From Candidatus Poribacteria bacterium (GTDB lineage: Bacteria > Poribacteria > WGA-4E > PCPOR2b), in contig JAJEAL010000066.1 in NCBI GenBank assembly GCA_022822785.1, forward strand, positions 1 to 43,162: a stretch of DNA of 43,162 bases, read 5' to 3'. Below, piece after piece: positions 1-27,058 of the stretch. The notes below the pieces were generated by a model. It saw only the letters and a list, made by a program, of their open reading frames with translations, searched no databases and was not told the DNA's origin. The translations under genes were made by a program, and so were the position numbers. Every line of letters starts with the position of its first letter. Position 1 is the stretch's first letter.

Positions 1-315
1 ACTGTCGGTGATGTGCACCCTGCCGAGACGTTGTTAGGACAGAACTTCCCCAACCCGTTCAACCCAGAGACATGGAGTCCCTACCAGCTTGAAAGCGCAT
101 CAGATGTGGTTCTCTCTATTTACGACACAGCGGGCAGTATCGTGCGGACGATAGACCTCGGTTTCAAGCCACAAGGGTTCTATATGACGCGCTCTAGGGC
201 GGCACACTGGGACGGTCGTAACAACATGGGCGAGTCGGTTGCATCAGGGGTCTACTTCTACAGTTTGCGGACCACTGATTTTTCAGCGACACGGAAGATG
301 CTGATACTGAAATAG
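1..315 (+). CDS. C-terminal part of a secreted protein with a T9SS/FlgD-like sorting domain (5' end outside window)
   Basis: The reading frame is open from base 1, so this is the 3' end of a larger gene. The visible residues are almost exactly one C-terminal module: QNFPNPFNPETWSPYQL, then a beta-sandwich pattern (VVLSIYDTAG, HWDGRNNMGE, SGVYFYSL) and a basic end TRKMLILK. This is the FlgD-Ig-like / type IX secretion type C-terminal sorting domain that ends many extracellular proteins of Poribacteria and the Bacteroidetes group. The same module, with an identical last eight residues, ends the metallopeptidase at 15443-19429. The catalytic or binding part lies upstream of the window, so function cannot be told. 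Secretion and cell-surface anchoring are inferred from the module. Confidence 0.85.
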   Translation, partial: TVGDVHPAETLLGQNFPNPFNPETWSPYQLESASDVVLSIYDTAGSIVRTIDLGFKPQGFYMTRSRAAHWDGRNNMGESVASGVYFYSLRTTDFSATRKMLILK

Positions 316-364
316 CATCAAACGACCAGATGATGGTTAACAGGTTCATTATGGAGAGGGGTGT

Positions 365-1721: not shown

Positions 1722-1801
1722 CGCTCGGTTTGGATAAACATATCCGTATCATGCAGTAGATTTGTCAATCCACTGCGAGCAGAAGCTTAACATTTATCTG
1801 A
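1722..1801. repeat. Structured upstream repeat, copy 1
   Basis: This matches the repeat at 3638-3756: CTCGGTTTGGATA..CATATCC, then GATTTGTCAATCCACT, then CGAGCA, then GCTTAACATTTATCTGA. Two hairpins are conserved: GGATA/TATCC, and AGTAGATT/AATCCACT with one mismatch. The middle hairpin of copy 2 is absent. Like copy 2, it lies just upstream of a gene, here the acyltransferase starting at 1831. Confidence 0.6.
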
Positions 1802-1830
1802 CAATGTACTATTACTCAGTCATATAAATT

Positions 1831-3501
1831 ATGTCCATTCCTTCCTCTTCCAAACGGCGACATGACCTAGACGCCCTGCGTGCTATCGCCATGCTATTAG
1901 GCATTGCCATGCACGGATTGCTAGCATTTATTGAGTTTCCTTGGCCAATTCAAAATTCGCAAACAAGTCCCGGACTTGCACTTATCTTTTTTGCAGTACA
2001 CGGATTTTGGATGCCGGTTTTCTTTGTCATGAGCGGTTTTTTTGCTGCCATGTTATGGCGTATGCAGGGCTTGAAGTCGTTATTGTGGCATCGGTTTCGG
2101 CGTATCTTCTTGCCGTTGGTGTTGGGCTGTGTCACAATAGTCCCGATTACAAACTGGATTTACGAAAGGGCAATTCAATCTGCATTGCAACGTGCCATTG
2201 TGGCAGCCCCCTCCCGTTTCGTTCCAACAGATTCTGGGATGAATATTTGGATTGCAGCAAGAACTGGAAACCTTGAAGCCATCAAGGCGCACTTGGCAAA
2301 TAAAGTGGATCTCAGTGCCCACGATTCGCAGGCAGGACTTACCCCTTTATCGTGGGCAGCCTTGATGGGAAACGCAGAAGTCGTCGAACATCTCATCAAA
2401 TCAGGAGTAGATGTAAACGGCAAGAATAGTGATGGCGGCATACCACTACACGAAGCTGTTTTTATGGGACAAGATGAGGTTGTTGCCTTACTGCTTCAAA
2501 ATGGTGCGGAGATGGATGCCACGGATAATCAAGGTGAAATACCCTTAAACCGCGCCCGTGTAAGGTCAAAATACACACATGCTAGAGCCGCTGCATTACA
2601 AATTAAACTATATCCATTGCGCCTAGCAAATGCAAGGAGGCGTGTTGTCAATCTTCTCTCTGAATACGAGAACACGGGAAAGATTCAATATAAGTACAAC
2701 GCTGTTTGGCGTTTGTTGACAACAACAGAAATATTTGAACACCTCTGGTTTCTTTGGGTTCTCTGCTGGCTGGTCCTCGCTTTCGCCCTATATGCCGCAA
2801 TTGTTGACCGGATGCAGTGGACAGGCCCACCGCAAAAATTCATACTCTCGCCTCTCCGATATCTTTGGGTGATTCCCCTAACTATGCTAGCACAATGGTT
2901 TATGGCAGCAAAAGGTAATGTGCCAAATTTTGGCCCAGATGTTTCGTCAACCATTTTACCAGCACCTTATATACTTGTCTATTACGGCATCTTCTTTTTC
3001 TTTGGTGTCCTCTACTATGATAGTGATGACTGTACGGGAGAAGTTGGGAGACGGTGGGCAATCACCTTGCCAATAGCTATGTCAATCATCTTTCCCCTCG
3101 GATTGACATTTGGGGTACTGAATTTTATCGAACCTGTGTTTGGACTTATTCCGGGTTCACCCATACATCACCTTATTTCGGTCGCTATGCAGGCAGTGTA
3201 TGCATGGCTGATGGTCTTCTCCCTTATGGGGGCTTTTCGTCGATTGATGTCGAGAGAAAGCAAGGGGTGGCGCTACATCTCGGACTCCTCTTACTGGCTA
3301 TACCTTGCACACCTTCCCTTAGTTATCGCGGCACAACAAGTGGTGCAAATGTGGCAAGTGCCACTGATTGTCAAGTTCAGTCTAATATGTATTGTGGTAA
3401 CGGGGCTTCTACTGCTGAGTTACCAATTTTTGGTACGTTATACCTTTATAGGGGCGCTGCTGAATGGCCCACGCCAGCGTCCTCAGAAAGTTGTGAGTTA
3501 A
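1831..3501 (+). CDS. Membrane acyltransferase (acyltransferase 3 / OpgC-like) with internal ankyrin repeats
   Basis: A 556-residue protein. Residues 10-112 carry the acyltransferase-3 start: LDALRAIAM with Arg17, MHGL with His28, several membrane helices and the basic loop WHRFRRIFLP. Residues 300-545 resume with EHLWFLW and at least six more helices, as in OpgC/MdoC-type O-acyltransferases that move acyl groups onto envelope glycans. Between them, residues about 137-241 form three ankyrin-like repeats (IWIAARTGNLEAIKAHL, TPLSWAALMGNAEVVEHL, IPLHEAVFMGQDEVVALL). The membrane domain is therefore split by a soluble protein-binding module. There is no frameshift: one frame spans everything. A structured repeat lies immediately upstream. 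Acyl donor and acceptor are unknown. Family confidence is high; the role of the ankyrin insert is unknown. Confidence 0.85.
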   Translation: MSIPSSSKRRHDLDALRAIAMLLGIAMHGLLAFIEFPWPIQNSQTSPGLALIFFAVHGFWMPVFFVMSGFFAAMLWRMQGLKSLLWHRFRRIFLPLVLGCVTIVPITNWIYERAIQSALQRAIVAAPSRFVPTDSGMNIWIAARTGNLEAIKAHLANKVDLSAHDSQAGLTPLSWAALMGNAEVVEHLIKSGVDVNGKNSDGGIPLHEAVFMGQDEVVALLLQNGAEMDATDNQGEIPLNRARVRSKYTHARAAALQIKLYPLRLANARRRVVNLLSEYENTGKIQYKYNAVWRLLTTTEIFEHLWFLWVLCWLVLAFALYAAIVDRMQWTGPPQKFILSPLRYLWVIPLTMLAQWFMAAKGNVPNFGPDVSSTILPAPYILVYYGIFFFFGVLYYDSDDCTGEVGRRWAITLPIAMSIIFPLGLTFGVLNFIEPVFGLIPGSPIHHLISVAMQAVYAWLMVFSLMGAFRRLMSRESKGWRYISDSSYWLYLAHLPLVIAAQQVVQMWQVPLIVKFSLICIVVTGLLLLSYQFLVRYTFIGALLNGPRQRPQKVVS

Positions 3502-3637
3502 CCAAAACCCCTAGTATCCTGACCATACCTTCATTCTACAAGTCCTGATTTGGACAAAATATGACTTTTTGGCTCATATCAAAAGAAAGTGCAAAGCGCG
3601 GGGAGAAACCGAGTTTTTATTGTGACAAGTCACTCAC

Positions 3638-3756
3638 GGCTCGGCTTGGATAGACATATCCAAGCCATAAATACCCGGCTGATAGCACCATGTGCTAGGG
3701 AGCTGTGTAGTGGATTTGTCAATCCACTACGAGCAAGACCATTAGCATTTATCTGA
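3638..3756. repeat. Structured upstream repeat, copy 2, with three tandem hairpins
   Basis: Three perfect hairpins lie in a row. The first is GGCTTGGATA (3643-3652) with TATCCAAGCC (3657-3666), loop GACA. The second is TAGCAC (3683-3688) with GTGCTA (3692-3697), loop CAT. The third is GTAGTGGATT (3707-3716) with AATCCACTAC (3721-3730), loop TGTC. Outer sequence (CTCGGCTTGGATA; CGAGCA..ATTTATCTGA) is shared with 1722-1801. The rest of the 3502-3903 gap shows only a half-copy of an ACCGAGTTTTT terminator arm near 3608. Confidence 0.7.
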
Positions 3757-3903
3757 TAGAGTAATAATCTTGAAACGAAAATTGATGATATGGATAAACA
3801 CCTCACACTCCAACCAAAAAAAACTGTAATGAAACGTTATTGGCAAGATGGTAATGGAACGCCAAGAAATCCACTTCGACAAACCCCGAACAAGGAGAAA
3901 ATG

Positions 3904-4561: not shown

Positions 4562-4773
4562 ATCGTGAAGTTCAGAGGACAGAGAAATCCGCACCCTATT
4601 GCCCCCAGGCCCGGTAAGTGCGGTTTCCAACCCTGGTCTCGATTTATCGGACCGCACCGCCTCCCGACGAGCTATGACACCAGTAGGTGCGGTTTTTAAC
4701 CGCACCGCATCCCGACGAGTCGGGACAGGATACGGAGAGCAAAAGCGTCCATTCACTTTTAGGATTTACTATA
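4562..4773. mobile_element. MITE-like element, copy 1 (left border uncertain)
   Basis: The right end, AAAGCGTCCATTCAC..TTTACTATA, reads on the opposite strand as TATAGTAAATCCTAAAAG, matching the ends of the other copies. The interior holds CCCAGGCCCGGTAAGTGCGG and a perfect hairpin GGTGCGGTT (4686-4694) / AACCGCACC (4698-4706). The left end is diverged. The element fills most of the gap between the genes ending at 4530 and starting at 4820. Confidence 0.65.
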
Positions 4774-11143: not shown

Positions 11144-11200
11144 AGTGCAAAGAAGCCGAGTTTTTTCGGAAAAACTCGGTTTATCTTCCTGTTTTGCACT
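11144..11200 (+). terminator. Two-tier terminator-like hairpin
   Basis: The inner stem is CCGAGTTTTT (11156-11165) with AAAAACTCGG (11170-11179) and a 4-base loop. The outer stem is AGTGCAAA (11144-11151) with TTTGCACT (11193-11200), followed by TTCTTTTT. It is well placed to end the sodC transcript before the gene at 11243. A second hairpin with the same CCGAGTTTT core is at 25833-25872. Confidence 0.75.
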
Positions 11201-11242
11201 TTCTTTTTACATGAGCGTTAATCTTAAAAAAGGAGATTCAAC

Positions 11243-12427
11243 ATGACTATCAGCAGATTCACCCCCTTTGGGTTTGTCTTAACGATTGCCGTGCTAATCA
11301 CGGGACTTTCTGCCTGTGACCAGATCGATCAACTCCTCCGCCCCACACCGCCCCAGATGGAAGGACTCCGTGGCGAGATTTCGATCGGTGTCGTCTTACC
11401 CCAGACGGGACACTTAGGCCCCGGTGAGTTCGGTCCTGGTGCTTTAGTGATGGAAAACGGCTTTAACATGGCGGCCGAAGAGATCAACAACTCACAACTC
11501 AGCGATGTAAGACTCAAGCTCATCATCGAGGACGACCAAAGCACCGTCGACGGTGCCGTTGCGGCTTTCAATAAACTGATTCATGGTGACAAAGTCCCCG
11601 TCATCATTGGTGTCTGGACATCAACGGTCGCCCGGGCGGTTTTCCCGATCGCGCAGGAAAATGGGGTCGTGGCTTTCAGTCCCGTCGTCATCTCCCCCGG
11701 CTTGACAGAGATTGGCGATTTTATCTTCCGGGCAAGTCACAGCACAGAAATGCTGATTCCTGATGGGGTCAAGGTGACTCAGGAGAAACTCGGCTACCAG
11801 CAAGTCGCGACGATCGCCGAGAGCAACGATGACTTCTCTGCGAATAGTGACGCGCGATTCAAAAAGACATTCGCGGATAGCGGCATTGAGGTCGTGGCTT
11901 CGGAAACGTTCGAGACCGGTGATACCGATCTTTCCGCACAATTAACGCGCATCAAGGAATCCAATCCGGAGGCCATCTTTGTGTCGGCACAACAGATAGG
12001 GGTGATTAAGATCTTAACCCAAGGGCGTCAGCTTGGGATTCCTTCTGAGATTCCCTTTATTAGTCTCGTTCTGTCCGTCGATGAAATCCGAGAGGCGGGC
12101 GCTGCCGCCGAGGGGGCAATCACTTTTACCGACTGGGTCAGCACCGCTGATACACCGGGCAATGGTGCATTCGTTCAGAATTACACCGCGAGATACGGTA
12201 TGGAACCGAGCGTCTGGGCGGCGCAGCCGTATGCCGCTGTCTATATCTTGGCAAAAGCGATTTCAGACGCCCAATCCACCGATGCAACGGCGATTCGGGA
12301 CGCATTGGCGGCGGTCAAAGACTTCGATACAATTCTCGGTCAGTTTTCCTTTAACGCTGTCGGGGACCCGGTCTATGACCCGGTTGTATTGATTGTCAAG
12401 GACAGCGAACTTCAGGTCTTTGAGTGA
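11243..12427 (+). CDS. Periplasmic ligand-binding lipoprotein, branched-chain amino-acid (LivJ) type, copy 1
   Basis: A 394-residue protein with AAAAAGGAG before the ATG. The signal ends in lipobox LSAC. The mature protein fits the type I periplasmic-binding fold (Peripla_BP_6): ISIGVVLPQTG, NGFNMAAEEIN, IIEDDQSTVDGAVAAFNKLIH, VPVIIGVWTSTVARAVFPIAQENGVVAFSP. It ends with LGQFSFNAVGDPVYDPVVLIVKDSELQVFE. Relatives bind amino acids, amides or urea and feed ABC permeases, but no permease or ATPase gene is present here. The paralogue at 13615-14814 shares the same layout and motifs, so the two arose by duplication. Ligand unknown. Confidence 0.9.
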   Translation: MTISRFTPFGFVLTIAVLITGLSACDQIDQLLRPTPPQMEGLRGEISIGVVLPQTGHLGPGEFGPGALVMENGFNMAAEEINNSQLSDVRLKLIIEDDQSTVDGAVAAFNKLIHGDKVPVIIGVWTSTVARAVFPIAQENGVVAFSPVVISPGLTEIGDFIFRASHSTEMLIPDGVKVTQEKLGYQQVATIAESNDDFSANSDARFKKTFADSGIEVVASETFETGDTDLSAQLTRIKESNPEAIFVSAQQIGVIKILTQGRQLGIPSEIPFISLVLSVDEIREAGAAAEGAITFTDWVSTADTPGNGAFVQNYTARYGMEPSVWAAQPYAAVYILAKAISDAQSTDATAIRDALAAVKDFDTILGQFSFNAVGDPVYDPVVLIVKDSELQVFE

Positions 12428-13614: not shown

Positions 13615-14814
13615 ATGAATATCAGAAGGTTCATCCCATTCGCGTTTGCCTTAACGATTGTCACGCTGATTGCGGGGTTGAGTGCCTGTGATGAGTTGGT
13701 TACGATACTCTCTGATGACGAGATGCCAGCGCAGCTACCCGACGAGATACGAATCGGGATAGTTCTACCCTTTTCAGGTCAGTATGTCACAGGACCGGAC
13801 GATCCGCTCGTGCAACTCTACCTCAACGGGTTTTTGTTGGCGCGAGACGAGATCAACGCAAGACAGCTATCGCCGCCCCATCTTCAATTCATCATTGAGG
13901 ACGACCAGAGTACCGTAGAAGGTGCCCTTGCAGCCTACAATAAGCTAATTCACGAAGATAGGGTCGCCGCTATCCTGGGTCCCGCCAGTTCGACCCAAGT
14001 GGAAATGGCGTTCCCCGTGGCGGAGGAAAACCAGATAGTGGCGATCGGGGCGTCGGCCGCGGCTCAGGGATTGAGTGCGATCGGGGATTATGTGTTCAGG
14101 GTGAACCAACCAGTGAATACACTCATCCCCCGCGGCGTCAGGCTCACCCATGAACGGTTGGAGTATCAGCGCGTTGCCAAACTTGCCACGAGCGATGATG
14201 TTTATTCAGTGAGTGCCGACGCTATCTTTGCCGAATCGCTCCATGCGCTCGGTGTCGAGGTCTTGACCACCGAAGCGGTCCCCCTCCGCGCCGGCGATTA
14301 TACCGAGCCACTCACACGGATCAAGGAACTCGCTCCGGATGCGATCATGGTCTCAGCGCAACCGTCTGATATGCCGGATATCCTGATTCAGGCACGTCAG
14401 GTCGGCATCGGGGCAGACGTGCCGATAATTATACCCCTGCTCAGTTCGACCGAGGTGCAGAAAGCAGGCGAAGCCGCCGAGGGTGTAATTACCTTTGCCG
14501 CATGGTCAATCAAGGCAGACACCCCCAACAACCAAGCGTTTGTCCGCAACTTCCGTGCAAAATATGAATCAGACCCGAACCTGTTCAGCGCGTTGGCTTA
14601 CACATCAGTCTATCTCCTGACCAATGCAATCTCCGATGCCGGGTCAATCGAATCGGACGCGGTTCGTGATGCACTCGCTGAGACGAAGGATTTTGATACC
14701 GTGTTGGGCAGATTCTCCTTTGACGCGGTGGGCGATCCGGTGTATGATCCCGTCATGTTGATTGTCCGAGATGGCGGGTTGGAGGCATTTATGGTGAATT
14801 CTAAAAATAAATGA
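13615..14814 (+). CDS. Periplasmic ligand-binding lipoprotein, LivJ type, copy 2, with 3' end inside a MITE-like element
   Basis: 399 residues from the ATG at 13615 (AAAAAAAGGAG upstream). The frame is open to 13519, but that part lacks a signal. Lipobox LSAC and the type I binding-protein fold match copy 1 at 11243-12427 (IRIGIVLPFSGQ, IIEDDQSTVEGALAAYNKLIH, FDTVLGRFSFDAVGDPVYDPVMLIVRD). Copy 1 ends at KDSELQVFE; this copy continues past LEAF with MVNSKNK. Those residues and the TGA are encoded by the left end of the element starting at 14790, so the original stop has been replaced. No permease or ATPase is linked. Function is probably sensing or uptake of an amino acid or amide. Confidence 0.9.
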   Translation: MNIRRFIPFAFALTIVTLIAGLSACDELVTILSDDEMPAQLPDEIRIGIVLPFSGQYVTGPDDPLVQLYLNGFLLARDEINARQLSPPHLQFIIEDDQSTVEGALAAYNKLIHEDRVAAILGPASSTQVEMAFPVAEENQIVAIGASAAAQGLSAIGDYVFRVNQPVNTLIPRGVRLTHERLEYQRVAKLATSDDVYSVSADAIFAESLHALGVEVLTTEAVPLRAGDYTEPLTRIKELAPDAIMVSAQPSDMPDILIQARQVGIGADVPIIIPLLSSTEVQKAGEAAEGVITFAAWSIKADTPNNQAFVRNFRAKYESDPNLFSALAYTSVYLLTNAISDAGSIESDAVRDALAETKDFDTVLGRFSFDAVGDPVYDPVMLIVRDGGLEAFMVNSKNK

Positions 14815-15239
14815 ACACTTCCGCCCCTCGGTTTCGATAAATAATTCGGTAATACTAGATTTTCCCCAGGCCCGGTAGGTGCGGTTTTCAACCGCACCGA
14901 ATGCAGTCCAACCCGGTAGGTGCGATTTCCAACCGCACCATATAGACGCGTGGGTTGAAACGGCGCAGTTAGAAACAGCGCCTACCAAATCCCGATTTAT
15001 CGAGATCCCGTGACTACGGGACGAGGAGACTGGTAGGTGCGGTCCGATAAATCGAGACTAGGGTTGGAAACCGCACCTACCGGGCCTAGGGGAAAATATA
15101 GAGTTACTGAATTATTTTCTGAAACCTCATTTATGGTGAACAATATAAATATGTAGACACTTTCGATCCATATGTTTGGTAGGCGCTGTTTCTAACTGCG
15201 CCGGTATAGAGTGTCCAAGTAATTCTAAAATTCACCATA
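14790..15239. mobile_element. MITE-like element(s), copy 2, composite
   Basis: The left end, TATGGTGAATTCTAAAAATA (14790-14809), and the right end, ending TTCACCATA at 15239, are inverted copies. A further left-type end (TATGGTGAACA) lies near 15131, so two elements may be joined. Inside, AATAATTCGGTAAT..TTTTCCCCAGGCCCGG (about 14838-14873) recurs inverted at about 15060-15120. Several GGTGCGGTT/AACCGCACC palindromes lie between. No transposase ORF exists. The element fills most of the 14815-15442 gap. Confidence 0.75.
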
Positions 15240-15442
15240 GTTTGCGGCATAAGATCACAATCTAACAGATCGCGGTACAAAAGAATACTTTGTTGGGTTT
15301 CACTCTATCTATAAGCAGGTGGGGTTCAACGACCCTGCCCTTATTGGATTTGATAGGGATTGACGTTTAACCGTTCAACCCAACCTATGGACTGGTAAAT
15401 GTCAATTGATGATCTCATCACAAACAGAAAGGAAATATCTTA
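15240..15442. other. Leader region of the metallopeptidase gene with a long-range palindrome
   Basis: GTTGGGTT near 15293 is complementary to AACCCAAC near 15377. Between them AGGTGGGGTTCAACGACCCTG is itself partly palindromic. This is probably another dispersed repeat. AGAAAGGAAA precedes the ATG at 15443. No promoter is convincing. Confidence 0.35.
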
Positions 15443-18400
15443 ATGAATAAGTCAATTCGGGCTTTACCGATAGTGCTGGCACTTTGTGCAGTGTTGGTAT
15501 CTATGCCCTCATGGATCTATGCCAAAACGGGTGCAAGACAGGCGCTTCAACTGAAGGCGGCATCGACATTACAGCGAATAAGATCCGCTTCAGCGAGCGC
15601 GGTGCGTGTTCGCTGGCATCAAGACAGAGGGACGGTGCGGAGCCTCTACAATCTGACCGTACCCGCACCCGTGGGGACGCCTGAAACATCGGCGCGTCAA
15701 TGCCTGAGTGACTACTGCGACCTGTTTGCGATGACCGATCCGACGGTCGAGTTACGGTTAAAAGCGGTCCAAAACAGTTTAACGGGCAGACATATCCGAT
15801 TCCACCAATACCATAGAGGGGTCGAAGTGTATGGCGCATCAGTCTCCGTCCATATCAATCGCAGTGGTCAGATACGGGTTATCCACAACAACTACTTCCC
15901 CCAGATCGACATCAGTACATCGGCATCGCTTTCAGCAGAACAGGCGATAAGCATCGCTTTAGCCGAGTCGGGTGCGATTGATTTACGGAAGCCGTCGCAG
16001 GCGGGGTTGGTTATTTTTCCTGCTCGTGATGGTGTGTATCATCTCGCTTACCGCGTGATCGTGCACCTCCGTCGCCCGTTAGCGGGTTGGGGGTATATCA
16101 TAGACGCCCACACCGGTGCGCCGTTACATCAACGGAGTGTGCTGAGGTTTGCAGACGGACGGGGGCGTGTGTTTAACCCGAACCCCGTTGTCGCCCTTAA
16201 AGATTTGACACTGATGGATCAGGACGATTCAGCGGACGCAATCCCCGATGACGCCTACACCGACGTGATACTCTCCGAACTGGACGGGACCGGTTATCTG
16301 GATGGGCGATACGTGAGCACGCGATTGACCCCCGATCGGGCTAACGAGCCGACATTGGAATACAACTACCTGCGCGACGATTCCCGATTCGAGGAGGTAA
16401 TGGTCTACTATCACGTCGATGCAGTGGGTCGTTATCTGAAAGGGCTCGGCTTCGATTTCGTAGACGATTGGCAGATCCCTACCAACGTCCACGTCAACGC
16501 CTCGAACAATGCGTTCTACGACGACAGCGACGGCTCAATAAACTTCGGGGATGGCGGTGTTGATACCGCCGAAGATGCCGAAGTGATTATCCACGAATAC
16601 GGTCATGCGATTTTGGATCGACAGGTGCCAAACATCTACATCGGCGAAGGGGGCGCGATACACGAAGGGTTCAGCGATTTTCTGGCAGCCAGCTTTTACA
16701 GCGCGGTCAGCGATGGCTTCGGTGATACGATTGTTTTTGACTGGGCAGGTTTAGAAGCGCCTGAGTTTTTAACCCGCCCCGTAGATGGTCACAAGCACTA
16801 CCCCGAAGACATAGTAGGGCAACCCCACGACGACGGGGAGATGTGGTCTGCGTCGTTATGGCAGCTTTTCCAAGCACTCGGACGCGACGGGTCAATACGG
16901 TTGGTTATCGAGAGCCATTTCTATCTATCGTCCGGCGCAGAATTTGTCGATGGCGCATCCGCACTTTTTACAGCGGATCAGGAGCTAAACAGCGGCGTCA
17001 ATGCCGACCTGATTTTGTCGGTCATGGAGAACCGTGGCTTCTTGACACCGCCGACATTGGCATCGGACAGCTTCGAGGAGAACGACACCGCGGATACCGC
17101 TTCTGCTGTCGAGCTTCCGTTTATCAATGGGGAGGTGTCTATCCACACAGGCGACGATACGGATCACTATCAGTTCCAGTTAACCGAGCCGATGCAGGTT
17201 GGGGTGGGCATAGACTTCCAACCGATCTACGGCGAGTTGATGCTCACCTTGACCGGCCCCACGGGTATCGCGCTGGTTAGCTTTGAGACGAAGGCGGTCA
17301 CATCGCTCGAATTGGAGCCGGGCGATTATCTCGTTGCTGTTTCAGGTGTCAACGGTGCGACCAACGATTATCAACTCGCGCTTATCATCGACAACCACGG
17401 CGATACACCGGAATCGGCAACCGCCGTAACGATTGGTGATACGGTAGAGAGTTTCATCGAGTTCACCGGCGATACCGATTTCTTCGCATTTGACGGTGAA
17501 CAAGGAACGTTGATTGACATCACTATTGAGACGGACGACTCCGATCTCGATTCGCTCCTTGTCGTCTATGGGCCGGATGGTGTTCTGTTTGCCAAAAACG
17601 ATGATGTTGCCTCCCTGTTTGACCCGTTCTCCGAACGCAATCCGAGTGGGATAGATTCCCGTGTGAATGAAGAACTGCCCGCTGATGGGACATATCTGAT
17701 CGCAGTGAGTAACATCGCCCCGCCGAAACTGAACACCCCTTTTGGTGGAGTCAACTATTCCTATACGCTGTCAATAACAGAAAATGTTGACGACCATGCG
17801 CCGTGCGGTAGCGGCGAGGAGACGCCGTTGGTTTGGGACGAACCGGTAACGGGGACGATCAATCTATTTACCAGTTCAGAAAATCCCTTTGGCGAAGATG
17901 CCGACGGGTTTCGGTTCGATGCCGCTGCGGGCGATGTCATCAGCTTGCACCTTGCCGTCGAAAGTAGCAACGAGTTTACATTTACAACCCTCCGCCTGTT
18001 AGATGAATTGGGTAATGAGTTACTCTCTAGCCAGACCCCTTTCGATGGCTCAGACCTGCGGATTGAGGGCTTTGAAATCGGTGCCGATGGCGTCTATTGT
18101 GTCGAAGTCAGCGGGCGGGTTTCCTTGACAGACGAGGATCACACCTATACGCTCACACTCTCTGAAGGCGAGCTCCAGGACGACGATCACGATACTCGGT
18201 GGGGCGATCCGACGCCTATCACATCGGGCGTCCCTGTTGAGGGAGTCATCAGTTTTGACGGGGATGCTGATGCGTTTCAGTTTGACACGACAGCGGGCGC
18301 GGTCATTACATTGGATGTGGAGCTGAACCCCCAAGCCCCGTTCTTCGGTGTGATGGTGACGCTGTATGACTCCAATTTAGAGCGGTTGACGGAGTCTTTT

Positions 18401-19429
18401 TGGTCTGGGTTTGATGAACCGGGAGCGGAGATTTTCGAATTTGATGAGCTACGAAGCGGATTTACGATTCCTGAGTCAGGCACTTACTATGTCGAAGTCA
18501 CCACTTTTTTCGGAGAGAGTAACGACGATTCCAGTTACACGCTCACCCTAACGATCGAAGGTGGCAGCGAACTCGGACTGTTTCCGCCCTATGATGTCAA
18601 TCAAGATGGTAAGGTGAACATCTTTGATCTGGTGCTTGTCGGTCAACATTTCGGCGAGACATTCATCAACGCCACGCCCACCGCTGATTTTGGACAGCGC
18701 CGATCGGTCTCGCCCGAAGGGGAGCTGCGGCTTCTGATGACACCGAGTGTAACTGATAGACGACAGTTGACGGTCTCCATCGACACCACAGCGATTACTG
18801 ATCTTTACGGCTACCATTTCTCAATCCAGTATGATTCGACAGTGTTGGAACTCATGACCGCCTCACCGAGTCTGCAGCTGGCGGATGCGCTGCAACAGAG
18901 TTATTGGAGTGTCGCTCAACAGGGGACACAACTACAACTGATACAGACACGCCAGGGCGCAACCGAAGGGGTCGCAGCGGAAGGGGCATTGGCGACACTC
19001 ATTTTTGATGTCAAACAGACCCAAGCACCGACCCCACCTGTCCAGTTGGTTGATGTGCAACTGGCGGATTCGCGGACCCGCGCGATTCCGGTCAATCTAG
19101 TTGCCGAACAGGTCTCGATGACAGAGCTGTTCCCTGATAAGCCGATGTTAATGCAAAACTATCCTAACCCGTTTAACCCCGAAACGTGGATCCCGTATCA
19201 GCTCTCTACCGATTCGGAGGTGGTGCTGTCAATTTACGATTCAAACGGTGAGCCTGTCCGTCGATTCGATTTGGGGTATCAGCACGTCGGGACATATTCT
19301 ACTCGCGGCAGAGCGGTTCACTGGGATGGCAAAAATGAATTCGGTGAGAATGTGGTAAGTGGTATATATTTCTATCACCTTTTAGCGGGTGATTATTCCC
19401 AAACACGAAAGATGCTGATACTCAAATAG
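15443..19429 (+). CDS. Secreted M4/M36-type metallopeptidase with PPC repeats, dockerin-like, cohesin-like and sorting domains
   Basis: 1328 residues. A signal peptide (1-27) is followed by an FTP/PepSY-like propeptide (about 80-230). The zinc peptidase domain has HEYGH (His384, Glu385, His388) and the third ligand Glu408 in HEGFSDF, as in thermolysin and fungalysin. Next come four pre-peptidase-C-terminal-like beta domains (about 545-1040), each with a GDxDxFxF-type core. A single dockerin-like calcium repeat follows (DVNQDGKVNIFDLVLVGQHF, about 1051-1070), then a cohesin-like domain (about 1095-1210: GYHFSIQYDSTVLELM, ATLIFDV). The end is the QNYPNPFNPETWIPYQL sorting module. It probably degrades extracellular protein at the cell surface. 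Carrying both dockerin and cohesin parts is notable. A MITE-like element follows directly. Confidence 0.9.
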   Translation: MNKSIRALPIVLALCAVLVSMPSWIYAKTGARQALQLKAASTLQRIRSASASAVRVRWHQDRGTVRSLYNLTVPAPVGTPETSARQCLSDYCDLFAMTDPTVELRLKAVQNSLTGRHIRFHQYHRGVEVYGASVSVHINRSGQIRVIHNNYFPQIDISTSASLSAEQAISIALAESGAIDLRKPSQAGLVIFPARDGVYHLAYRVIVHLRRPLAGWGYIIDAHTGAPLHQRSVLRFADGRGRVFNPNPVVALKDLTLMDQDDSADAIPDDAYTDVILSELDGTGYLDGRYVSTRLTPDRANEPTLEYNYLRDDSRFEEVMVYYHVDAVGRYLKGLGFDFVDDWQIPTNVHVNASNNAFYDDSDGSINFGDGGVDTAEDAEVIIHEYGHAILDRQVPNIYIGEGGAIHEGFSDFLAASFYSAVSDGFGDTIVFDWAGLEAPEFLTRPVDGHKHYPEDIVGQPHDDGEMWSASLWQLFQALGRDGSIRLVIESHFYLSSGAEFVDGASALFTADQELNSGVNADLILSVMENRGFLTPPTLASDSFEENDTADTASAVELPFINGEVSIHTGDDTDHYQFQLTEPMQVGVGIDFQPIYGELMLTLTGPTGIALVSFETKAVTSLELEPGDYLVAVSGVNGATNDYQLALIIDNHGDTPESATAVTIGDTVESFIEFTGDTDFFAFDGEQGTLIDITIETDDSDLDSLLVVYGPDGVLFAKNDDVASLFDPFSERNPSGIDSRVNEELPADGTYLIAVSNIAPPKLNTPFGGVNYSYTLSITENVDDHAPCGSGEETPLVWDEPVTGTINLFTSSENPFGEDADGFRFDAAAGDVISLHLAVESSNEFTFTTLRLLDELGNELLSSQTPFDGSDLRIEGFEIGADGVYCVEVSGRVSLTDEDHTYTLTLSEGELQDDDHDTRWGDPTPITSGVPVEGVISFDGDADAFQFDTTAGAVITLDVELNPQAPFFGVMVTLYDSNLERLTESFWSGFDEPGAEIFEFDELRSGFTIPESGTYYVEVTTFFGESNDDSSYTLTLTIEGGSELGLFPPYDVNQDGKVNIFDLVLVGQHFGETFINATPTADFGQRRSVSPEGELRLLMTPSVTDRRQLTVSIDTTAITDLYGYHFSIQYDSTVLELMTASPSLQLADALQQSYWSVAQQGTQLQLIQTRQGATEGVAAEGALATLIFDVKQTQAPTPPVQLVDVQLADSRTRAIPVNLVAEQVSMTELFPDKPMLMQNYPNPFNPETWIPYQLSTDSEVVLSIYDSNGEPVRRFDLGYQHVGTYSTRGRAVHWDGKNEFGENVVSGIYFYHLLAGDYSQTRKMLILK

Positions 19430-19439
19430 TATCAAATGC

Positions 19440-19581
19440 CCCTCCCGGTCCCGGTAGGTGCGGTTTCTAACTGCACTGCATAGGCACAGTTGAAAACAGT
19501 ACCTACCAGACGGGAGAACGGTAGGTGCGGTTTCTAACCGCACCGGTTTGGCGTGCCTCATTAACTCTAAGGTTCACTATA
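19440..19581. mobile_element. MITE-like element, copy 3
   Basis: The right end, ATTAACTCTAAGGTTCACTATA, finishing at 19581, is close to the inverted left end of the copy at 26897. The interior has two GGTAGGTGCGGTTTC units, a perfect GGTGCGGTT/AACCGCACC pair, and GTACCTACC as the complement of the first unit. The left end is not recognisable next to the peptidase stop codon. Confidence 0.65.
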
Positions 19582-19873: not shown

Positions 19874-20010
19874 TATAGCGAATTCTAAAAATAAGTAGAC
19901 ACCTTTGGCAGGTTTTGCCCAGTGGAGGCAGATCTTTTTTTATAAAAAAAGCTAAAGATTTTGGTATGAAACCGATATAATATATAACAGACTTTATTTT
20001 TAGAGGTAAA
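19874..20010. mobile_element. MITE-like element, copy 4 (right end degenerate)
   Basis: The left end at 19874 reads TATAGCGAATTCTAAAAATA followed by AGTAGACAC, nearly the family consensus. A possible right end is GACTTTATTTTTAGAGGTAAA near 19990-20010. The interior lacks GGTGCGGTT palindromes and is AT-rich. About 115 bases follow before the sigma-like gene. Confidence 0.5.
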
Positions 20011-25832: not shown

Positions 25833-25872
25833 AATAGAAACCGAGTTTTTTCTTGAAAACTCGGTTTCTATT
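25833..25872. terminator. Bidirectional intrinsic terminator between convergent genes
   Basis: A 17-bp perfect stem: AATAGAAACCGAGTTTT (25833-25849) with AAAACTCGGTTTCTATT (25856-25872), loop of six. A/T-rich flanks on both sides suit termination of the dehydrogenase (+) and the PhyH gene (-). The CCGAGTTTT core matches the terminator at 11144-11200. Confidence 0.85.
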
Positions 25873-25995
25873 AGTGTTTTGGCTTTACTTTTTATACGAG
25901 TTCCATAAGTCGCACTAATGAACAAATAATTTTCACGTTTCACGTTCTTCATGCGTTCCATTCTCTTTTGACGCGAATCTTGGGATATATTCATC

Positions 25996-26896: not shown

Positions 26897-27058
26897 TATA
26901 GTGGACCTTAGAATTAATGAGACGCTCCAAACCGCACCGCCTTGCCCCCGGGCCCTGGTAGGCGCTGTTTCCAACTGCGCCGATGCGGTGCGGTTTCTAA
27001 CCGCACCTACCAGGCACGGGGAGCGAAAGCGTCTATTTATTTTGTAGAATTTACTATA
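26897..27058. mobile_element. MITE-like element, copy 5 (complete, 162 bp)
   Basis: Left end TATAGTGGACCTTAGAATTA; right end, read inverted, TATAGTAAATTCTACAAAAT. Inside, CCTGGTAGG (26954-26962) pairs with CCTACCAGG (27006-27014), and GGTGCGGTT pairs with AACCGCACC. Both ends finish in TATA, suggesting a TA target. It abuts the stop codon of the MazG-like gene (27060). Confidence 0.75.

What the first reader, a model, noticed from the sequence alone, without database searches (positions are those of the whole stretch)
14781..14815. A mobile-type element end supplies the C-terminus and stop codon of a gene
The binding protein at 13615-14814 ends ..LEAFMVNSKNK, while its paralogue at 11243-12427 ends ..LQVFE. 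The extra residues and TGA lie exactly in the conserved left end (from 14790) of a MITE-like element; the same bases occur at 19874 outside any gene. The insertion therefore replaced the native stop and created a new tail.
Basis: seen in the sequence. Interest (0 to 1): 0.62.

Follow-up and report, generated by a model that had tools for sequence, protein, structure and literature searches.

The report
Mobile element rewrote a gene's end
In this Poribacteria genome the tip of a small, non-coding jumping element has replaced the last residue and stop codon of a nutrient-binding lipoprotein gene with seven new residues and its own stop codon, a real but probably harmless kind of insertion already known from other bacteria.

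Summary
The last seven codons (MVNSKNK) and the TGA of the Peripla_BP_6 gene 13615-14814 are the first 25 bases of a repeat end, TATGGTGAATTCTAAAAATAAATGAACAC. Ends of this type occur 147 times in the genome (reversed-pattern control: 0). Same-genus homologues without the element end ..AFE* or ..TFE*, so the tail comes from the element. The syntenic copy (G003:C63) matches the window up to exactly 14790 and again from 15443, with a 54-bp spacer and no element.

Corrections. (1) The 14790 end does not pair with the end at 15239: 15132-15239 is a separate complete 108-bp copy, and the first element's right end was not found. (2) The elements are TA-bordered MITEs whose two ends match those of a 908-bp IS630-type insertion sequence in the same genome. 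(3) It is not unique: five other genes end in the element, four of them exactly at the native stop codon's TA, gaining 4-6 residues (YGEF*-like). That is about the number neutral insertion predicts. The window gene also lost a native residue, so one further change is needed.

Known kind of event (Delihas 2007, RU-1 amidase; Coxiella enhC). Modest interest.

The parts
13615..14814 (+). Substrate-binding lipoprotein gene (Peripla_BP_6, 399 aa) whose last 7 codons and stop are element sequence
   Evidence: PF13458 193 bits against a 31.7 cut-off, domain ends at residue 371; nearest solved structures are HAAT/branched-chain amino acid binding proteins; LSAC lipobox read by eye only
14791..14814 (+). 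Element-encoded tail MVNSKNK and TGA stop
   Evidence: absent from homologues without the element
14790..14837 (+). Left end of a first MITE; its right end was not found
   Evidence: identical 29-bp end in the complete 107-bp copy L115; similar continuation CTTTCGCCCCTCGGTTTCGAT in L077; the limit at 14837 is approximate
14860..15095 (.). A different palindromic repeat (34-bp arms, 91% complementary) that follows, probably nested in the first MITE
   Evidence: I7; the same kind of repeat interrupts a related MITE in L077
15132..15239 (+). Separate, complete 108-bp MITE of the same family with TA borders
   Evidence: many 108-bp copies; hairpin z -3.35
19874..19902 (+).
11243..12427 (+). Paralogous binding-protein gene with a native end (..LQVFE*)

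Best explanation
A non-autonomous IS630-type (TA-target) MITE inserted at the 3' end of the binding-protein gene. Translation now runs into the element's left end (frame starting at its second base) and stops at a TGA inside the terminal repeat, so MVNSKNK replaces the native last residue (E) and stop. Shown: tail and stop are element sequence; homologues without the element end in E*; the family is multi-copy, TA-bordered and absent from the syntenic site in a relative. Inferred: movement in trans by an IS630 transposase such as the one at G000:C119; survival because the tail lies outside the folded domain; and one further local change at the junction (GAG to AAG making a TTTA target, or loss of 4 bases from TTTGAGTA after insertion into the stop codon).
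For: Identical end in complete copies; exact loss of homology at 14790 and return at 15443 in syntenic G003:C63; homologue ends ..FE*; TA borders with unrelated flanks; IS630 element L140 with matching left and right ends, 22 of 29 each, against a shuffled mean of 9-10; five other genes in the genome ended by the same family, four exactly at the native stop.
Against: The junction lacks the native GAGT, so a simple insertion does not give the present sequence. The right end of this copy was not found, so no target-site duplication can be shown for it. The syntenic relative's gene is itself 5'-truncated (it matches from about residue 186).
Confidence: 0.93

Rival explanations
1. The element targets stop codons or 3' ends on purpose, or its ends have been selected to restore a stop codon so that insertion into genes is benign.
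For: Four genes carry it exactly on the native stop TA (GNAT, deacetylase, amidase, TFWGN protein). The left end has a stop in all three frames within 25 bases.
Against: Stop-codon TAs make up about 5% of non-coding plus stop TAs in the window's gene set, so about 5 per 100 sites are expected and about 5 were seen. 51 ends from relatives gave no clear case. AT-rich terminal repeats hold stops by composition alone. The window case is not on the stop TA frame.
Confidence: 0.07
2. The tail is the native C-terminus of a paralogue that drifted, and the match to the repeat end is accidental or the repeat captured gene sequence.
For: This family has many paralogues with variable last residues.
Against: The 29 bases are identical to the end of a complete element elsewhere (L115); homology to the syntenic locus stops exactly at the TA; none of the homologue ends read carries such a tail.
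Confidence: 0.02
3. The new tail has been put to use (for example it changes export, stability or mRNA decay of the binding protein).
For: The reading frame is open and the rest of the gene intact; element hairpins at 3' ends can act on mRNA in other bacteria (PMC2229807; PMC5896051).
Against: The tail is 7 residues, outside the Pfam domain (ends at 371), and has no orthologue by which to test selection. The truncated left end here does not fold better than shuffles.
Confidence: 0.05

Closest known systems
RU-1 (ERIC-like) insertion at the 3' end of the Erwinia carotovora amidase gene ECA3499 (Delihas 2007, PMC2759123)
   Same: A TA-bordered MITE removed the normal stop codon and supplies a new C-terminal tail and stop, beyond the conserved domain.
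   Different: There the tail is about 34 residues of an open RU-1 reading frame; here it is 7 residues, with a stop inside the terminal repeat, from an unrelated element family.
QMITE2 extension of enhC in Coxiella burnetii Dugway (PMC5896051)
   Same: In-frame MITE supplies the C-terminal residues of a gene; other QMITE copies overlap gene ends by a few bases.
   Different: 33 residues, with the stop just downstream of the element; different element family and phylum.
RUP of Streptococcus pneumoniae, mobilised by IS630-Spn1 (reviewed in PMC2229807)
   Same: 107-bp MITE, TA target, ends matching an IS630-family insertion sequence, stops in all frames, about 100 copies.
   Different: RUP is described as intergenic or within IS elements; sequences were not aligned here.

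Membership tests
MITE (miniature inverted-repeat transposable element) | Short (about 100-400 bp), non-coding, many copies | tested here: met
   147 ends at 3 mismatches or fewer; complete copies commonly 108, 149, 190 bp, none long enough for a transposase
MITE (miniature inverted-repeat transposable element) | Terminal inverted repeats | tested here: met
   Complete copies have about 29-bp inverted ends; for the 14790 copy itself only the left end is present
MITE (miniature inverted-repeat transposable element) | Target-site duplication | tested here: inconclusive
IS630/Tc1-mariner-mobilised elements | Ends shared with an autonomous IS630 element in the same genome | tested here: met
   L140:1442-2349, PF01710 and PF13358 ORFs, ends match MITE left and right ends at 22 of 29 each
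IS630/Tc1-mariner-mobilised elements | Transposition of the MITE by that transposase | not testable with these tools
   needs an experiment
Periplasmic substrate-binding protein, branched-chain amino acid/HAAT type | Peripla_BP_6 domain above the curated cut-off | tested here: met
   193 bits against 31.7; solved relatives 4nqr, 4gnr; ligand not tested

The most novel reading that the evidence does not exclude
TA-specific IS630 MITEs of Poribacteria use TAA/TAG stop codons as safe landing sites: because the terminal repeat restores a stop within about four codons (YGEF*), the element can enter the very end of a gene without harm, and this has shaped the sequence of its ends.
Probability: 0.08. 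Interest if true: 0.5.

Novelty: new member of a known kind. Interest (0 to 1): 0.27.

Why it matters
It is an orthologue-controlled example, in a poorly studied phylum, of a mobile element writing the C-terminus and stop codon of a gene, with five further genes in the same genome. It suggests a simple rule: TA-target elements can sit on TAA/TAG stop codons almost neutrally. It also warns annotators that short odd C-termini in Poribacteria (YGEF, YGRF, MVNSKNK) can be element sequence.

Tried and rejected
Pairing the 14790 end with the 15239 end as one 450-bp element: rejected, because 15132-15239 matches the complete 108-bp copies. Targeting of stop codons: the observed number is about the chance number, and relatives add no clear case (one ORF in L202 ends inside an element but its sequence is partly masked and it was not followed). 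Remains of the native 3' flank inside 14819-15442: no alignment better than shuffles (score 23, shuffled mean 19, max 33). The genome-contig scan gave only one close relative, the same G003 contig. Literature on Poribacteria with MITEs or IS630: none held. In one search, loci from the minus strand were read in the wrong direction; only the plus-strand rows of that output are used.

Full report
Observation. The gene at 13615-14814 encodes a 399-residue substrate-binding protein (PF13458 Peripla_BP_6, 193 bits; nearest solved structures are HAAT/branched-chain amino acid binding proteins). Its last codons are GCA TTT ATG GTG AAT TCT AAA AAT AAA TGA, i.e. ..AFMVNSKNK*. The T at 14790 is the third base of the TTT codon and the first base of a repeat end, TATGGTGAATTCTAAAAATAAATGAACAC. 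The Pfam domain ends at residue 371, so the tail is outside it. The paralogue at 11243-12427 ends ..LQVFE*. A near copy of the end lies at 19874, between genes.

Is the repeat real? Ends matching TATRGTGAATTNTAAAATTANKTRGACAC at 3 mismatches or fewer occur 147 times in the genome; the reversed pattern occurs 0 times. I fetched 90 loci with flanks and found 176 distinct ends with a looser pattern. Most pair up into complete elements, commonest 108, 149 and 190 bp, with TA at both borders and unrelated flanks. The copy at G000:C52:65484 (L115, 107 bp) begins with exactly the same 29 bases as 14790. Two intact copies fold as single strands into long hairpins (z -3.84 and -3.35). Related ends are present in 31 of 40 genomes searched (own included): 54 to 141 in G002-G005 of the same genus, none in G001. 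One homologous contig is public as JAJDUM010000039.1, a Candidatus Poribacteria MAG, which places the window in that phylum.

What moves it? A search for IS630-type DDE_3 transposases found six matches in the genome. The best, at G000:C119 (L140), has an HTH_Tnp_IS630 ORF (PF01710, 88 bits) and a DDE_3 ORF inside 908 bp bounded by TATGGTGGATGATAGAATTACTGATACAT and, inverted, TATGGTAGATAATATAAATAAGTGAACAT. The 14790-type end matches the second at 22 of 29 positions, and the opposite MITE end (TATGGTGAATTTTAGAATTACTTGGACAC) matches the first at 22 of 29, against a shuffled mean of 9-10. So left and right ends correspond. That this transposase moves the MITEs is inferred.

Anatomy of 14790-15442. 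One search shows that 15132-15239 is a complete 108-bp copy by itself. Between them is another palindromic repeat (arms 14860-14893 and 15062-15095); a repeat of the same kind interrupts a related MITE in L077. So the region is read as the left part of a first MITE (about 14790-14837), a second repeat that probably broke it, and a separate intact MITE. The first element's right end was not found.

Orthologue test. In genome G003 (same genus) three homologues at 80-86% protein identity end ..LETFE* (C10, TTTGAGTAG)..FETFE* (C61, TTTGAATAG) and ..LEAFE* (C63, TTTGAGTAG). More distant homologues whose ends were read finish in FE, FQ, PF or similar; none carries MVNSKNK. G003:C63 is syntenic: its DNA matches the window up to exactly 14790 and again from 15443 (92.5%), with only a 54-bp spacer and no element. 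Caveat: the C63 gene has lost its 5' part (it matches from about residue 186).

With an ancestor ..GCATTTGAGTAG, a clean insertion at the TA of TAG would give AFEYGEF*, not AFMVNSKNK*. The window lacks the GAGT bases. Either a GAG-to-AAG change first made a TTTA target one codon upstream, or the insertion hit the stop codon and 4 bases (GAGT or TGAG) were then lost. The present data cannot choose, because the element's right flank was not found.

Is it a general event? I looked for long ORFs that run into an element end and compared the real genes with their orthologues. GNAT acetyltransferase: orthologues ..FTI*, here ..FTI-YGEY*. Polysaccharide deacetylase..CYY*, here ..CYY-YGELEK*. A protein of about 460 residues (the searched part has no Pfam match)..TFWGN*, here ..TFWGN-YGRF*. 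Amidase..RPPLN* or ..RPPLD*, here ..RPPLS-YGES*. SurA/PPIase-like: variable ends, here ..DDAA-YSGP*. In the first four the element sits exactly on the TA of the native stop codon and its own end, read in frame (TAT GGT GAA TTC TAA and variants), adds 4-6 residues and a new stop. An IS605 TnpB-like fragment also ends in element sequence (..SMVNNINM*). The window gene is the odd one: another frame, and a native residue lost.

Chance level. In a simple gene set for the window there are 25 stop-codon TAs and 469 intergenic TAs. If insertions survive only at such sites, about 5% should be at stop codons: about 5 per 100 sites, against about 5 seen (the number of distinct sites sampled, roughly 100, is an estimate from 176 ends). 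51 ends from relatives added no clear case. There is no sign of targeting; survival of harmless insertions is enough.

Comparison with the literature. Delihas 2007 (PMC2759123) describes an amidase gene in Erwinia whose normal stop was removed by a TA-bordered MITE that supplies a new C-terminal tail. The Coxiella enhC/QMITE2 case is similar (PMC5896051). The pneumococcal RUP is a TA-target MITE proposed to be mobilised by an IS630 transposase, with stops in all frames (PMC2229807). The Poribacteria case joins these known facts in one element family; no paper on it was held in the library.

Verdict. Observation confirmed; interpretation supported with the refinements above. A new member of a known kind of event, probably neutral; modest interest.

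Noticed in passing
L146, L162, L178, L154 (own genome: G000:C57, C4, C63, C65): Four other genes have the element exactly on the TA of their native stop codon and gain YGEY, YGELEK, YGRF or YGES plus a new stop; a SurA-like gene (L170) gains YSGP.
   Followed up: yes
L140:1442-2349 (G000:C119): A 908-bp IS630-type insertion sequence (HTH and DDE_3 in two ORFs) whose ends match the MITE ends; likely mobiliser.
   Followed up: partly
L001:1501-1690 and upstream ORF: An IS605 TnpB/OrfB-like fragment is ended by a MITE (tail SMVNNINM*).
   Followed up: partly
L072 (G003:C63:28000-35000): The syntenic relative appears to have lost the window's 11243 binding-protein gene and the 5' half of the 13615 gene, leaving a 3' remnant next to the large downstream gene.
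   Followed up: partly
window 4681-4714, 14873-14947, 15177-15210, 19452-19552, 26956-27015: Palindromic GGTAGGTGCGGTTTCTAACCGCACC repeats recur alone, in tandem and inside the MITEs.
   Followed up: no
window 3572-3618, 11151-11216, 25836-25900: Another repeat family, GAAACCGAGTTTTTTC..GAAAACTCGGTTTCT followed by a conserved tail, in both orientations.
   Followed up: no
window 276-327 and 19390-19441: A 52-bp direct repeat (81%) about 19 kb apart, ACACGAAAGATGCTGATACTCAAATAGTATCAAA; the second copy spans the stop codon of the ORF ending at 19429.
   Followed up: no
window 1752-1811 and 3706-3766: A repeated palindrome TGTAGTGGATTTGTCAATCCACTACGAGCA plus a second conserved block after it, one copy on each side of the 1831-3501 ORF.
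   Followed up: no
G000:C1:9923-16206 and the two genes in the window: Lineage-specific expansion of Peripla_BP_6 binding proteins: 15 matches in this genome, including tandem arrays.
   Followed up: no
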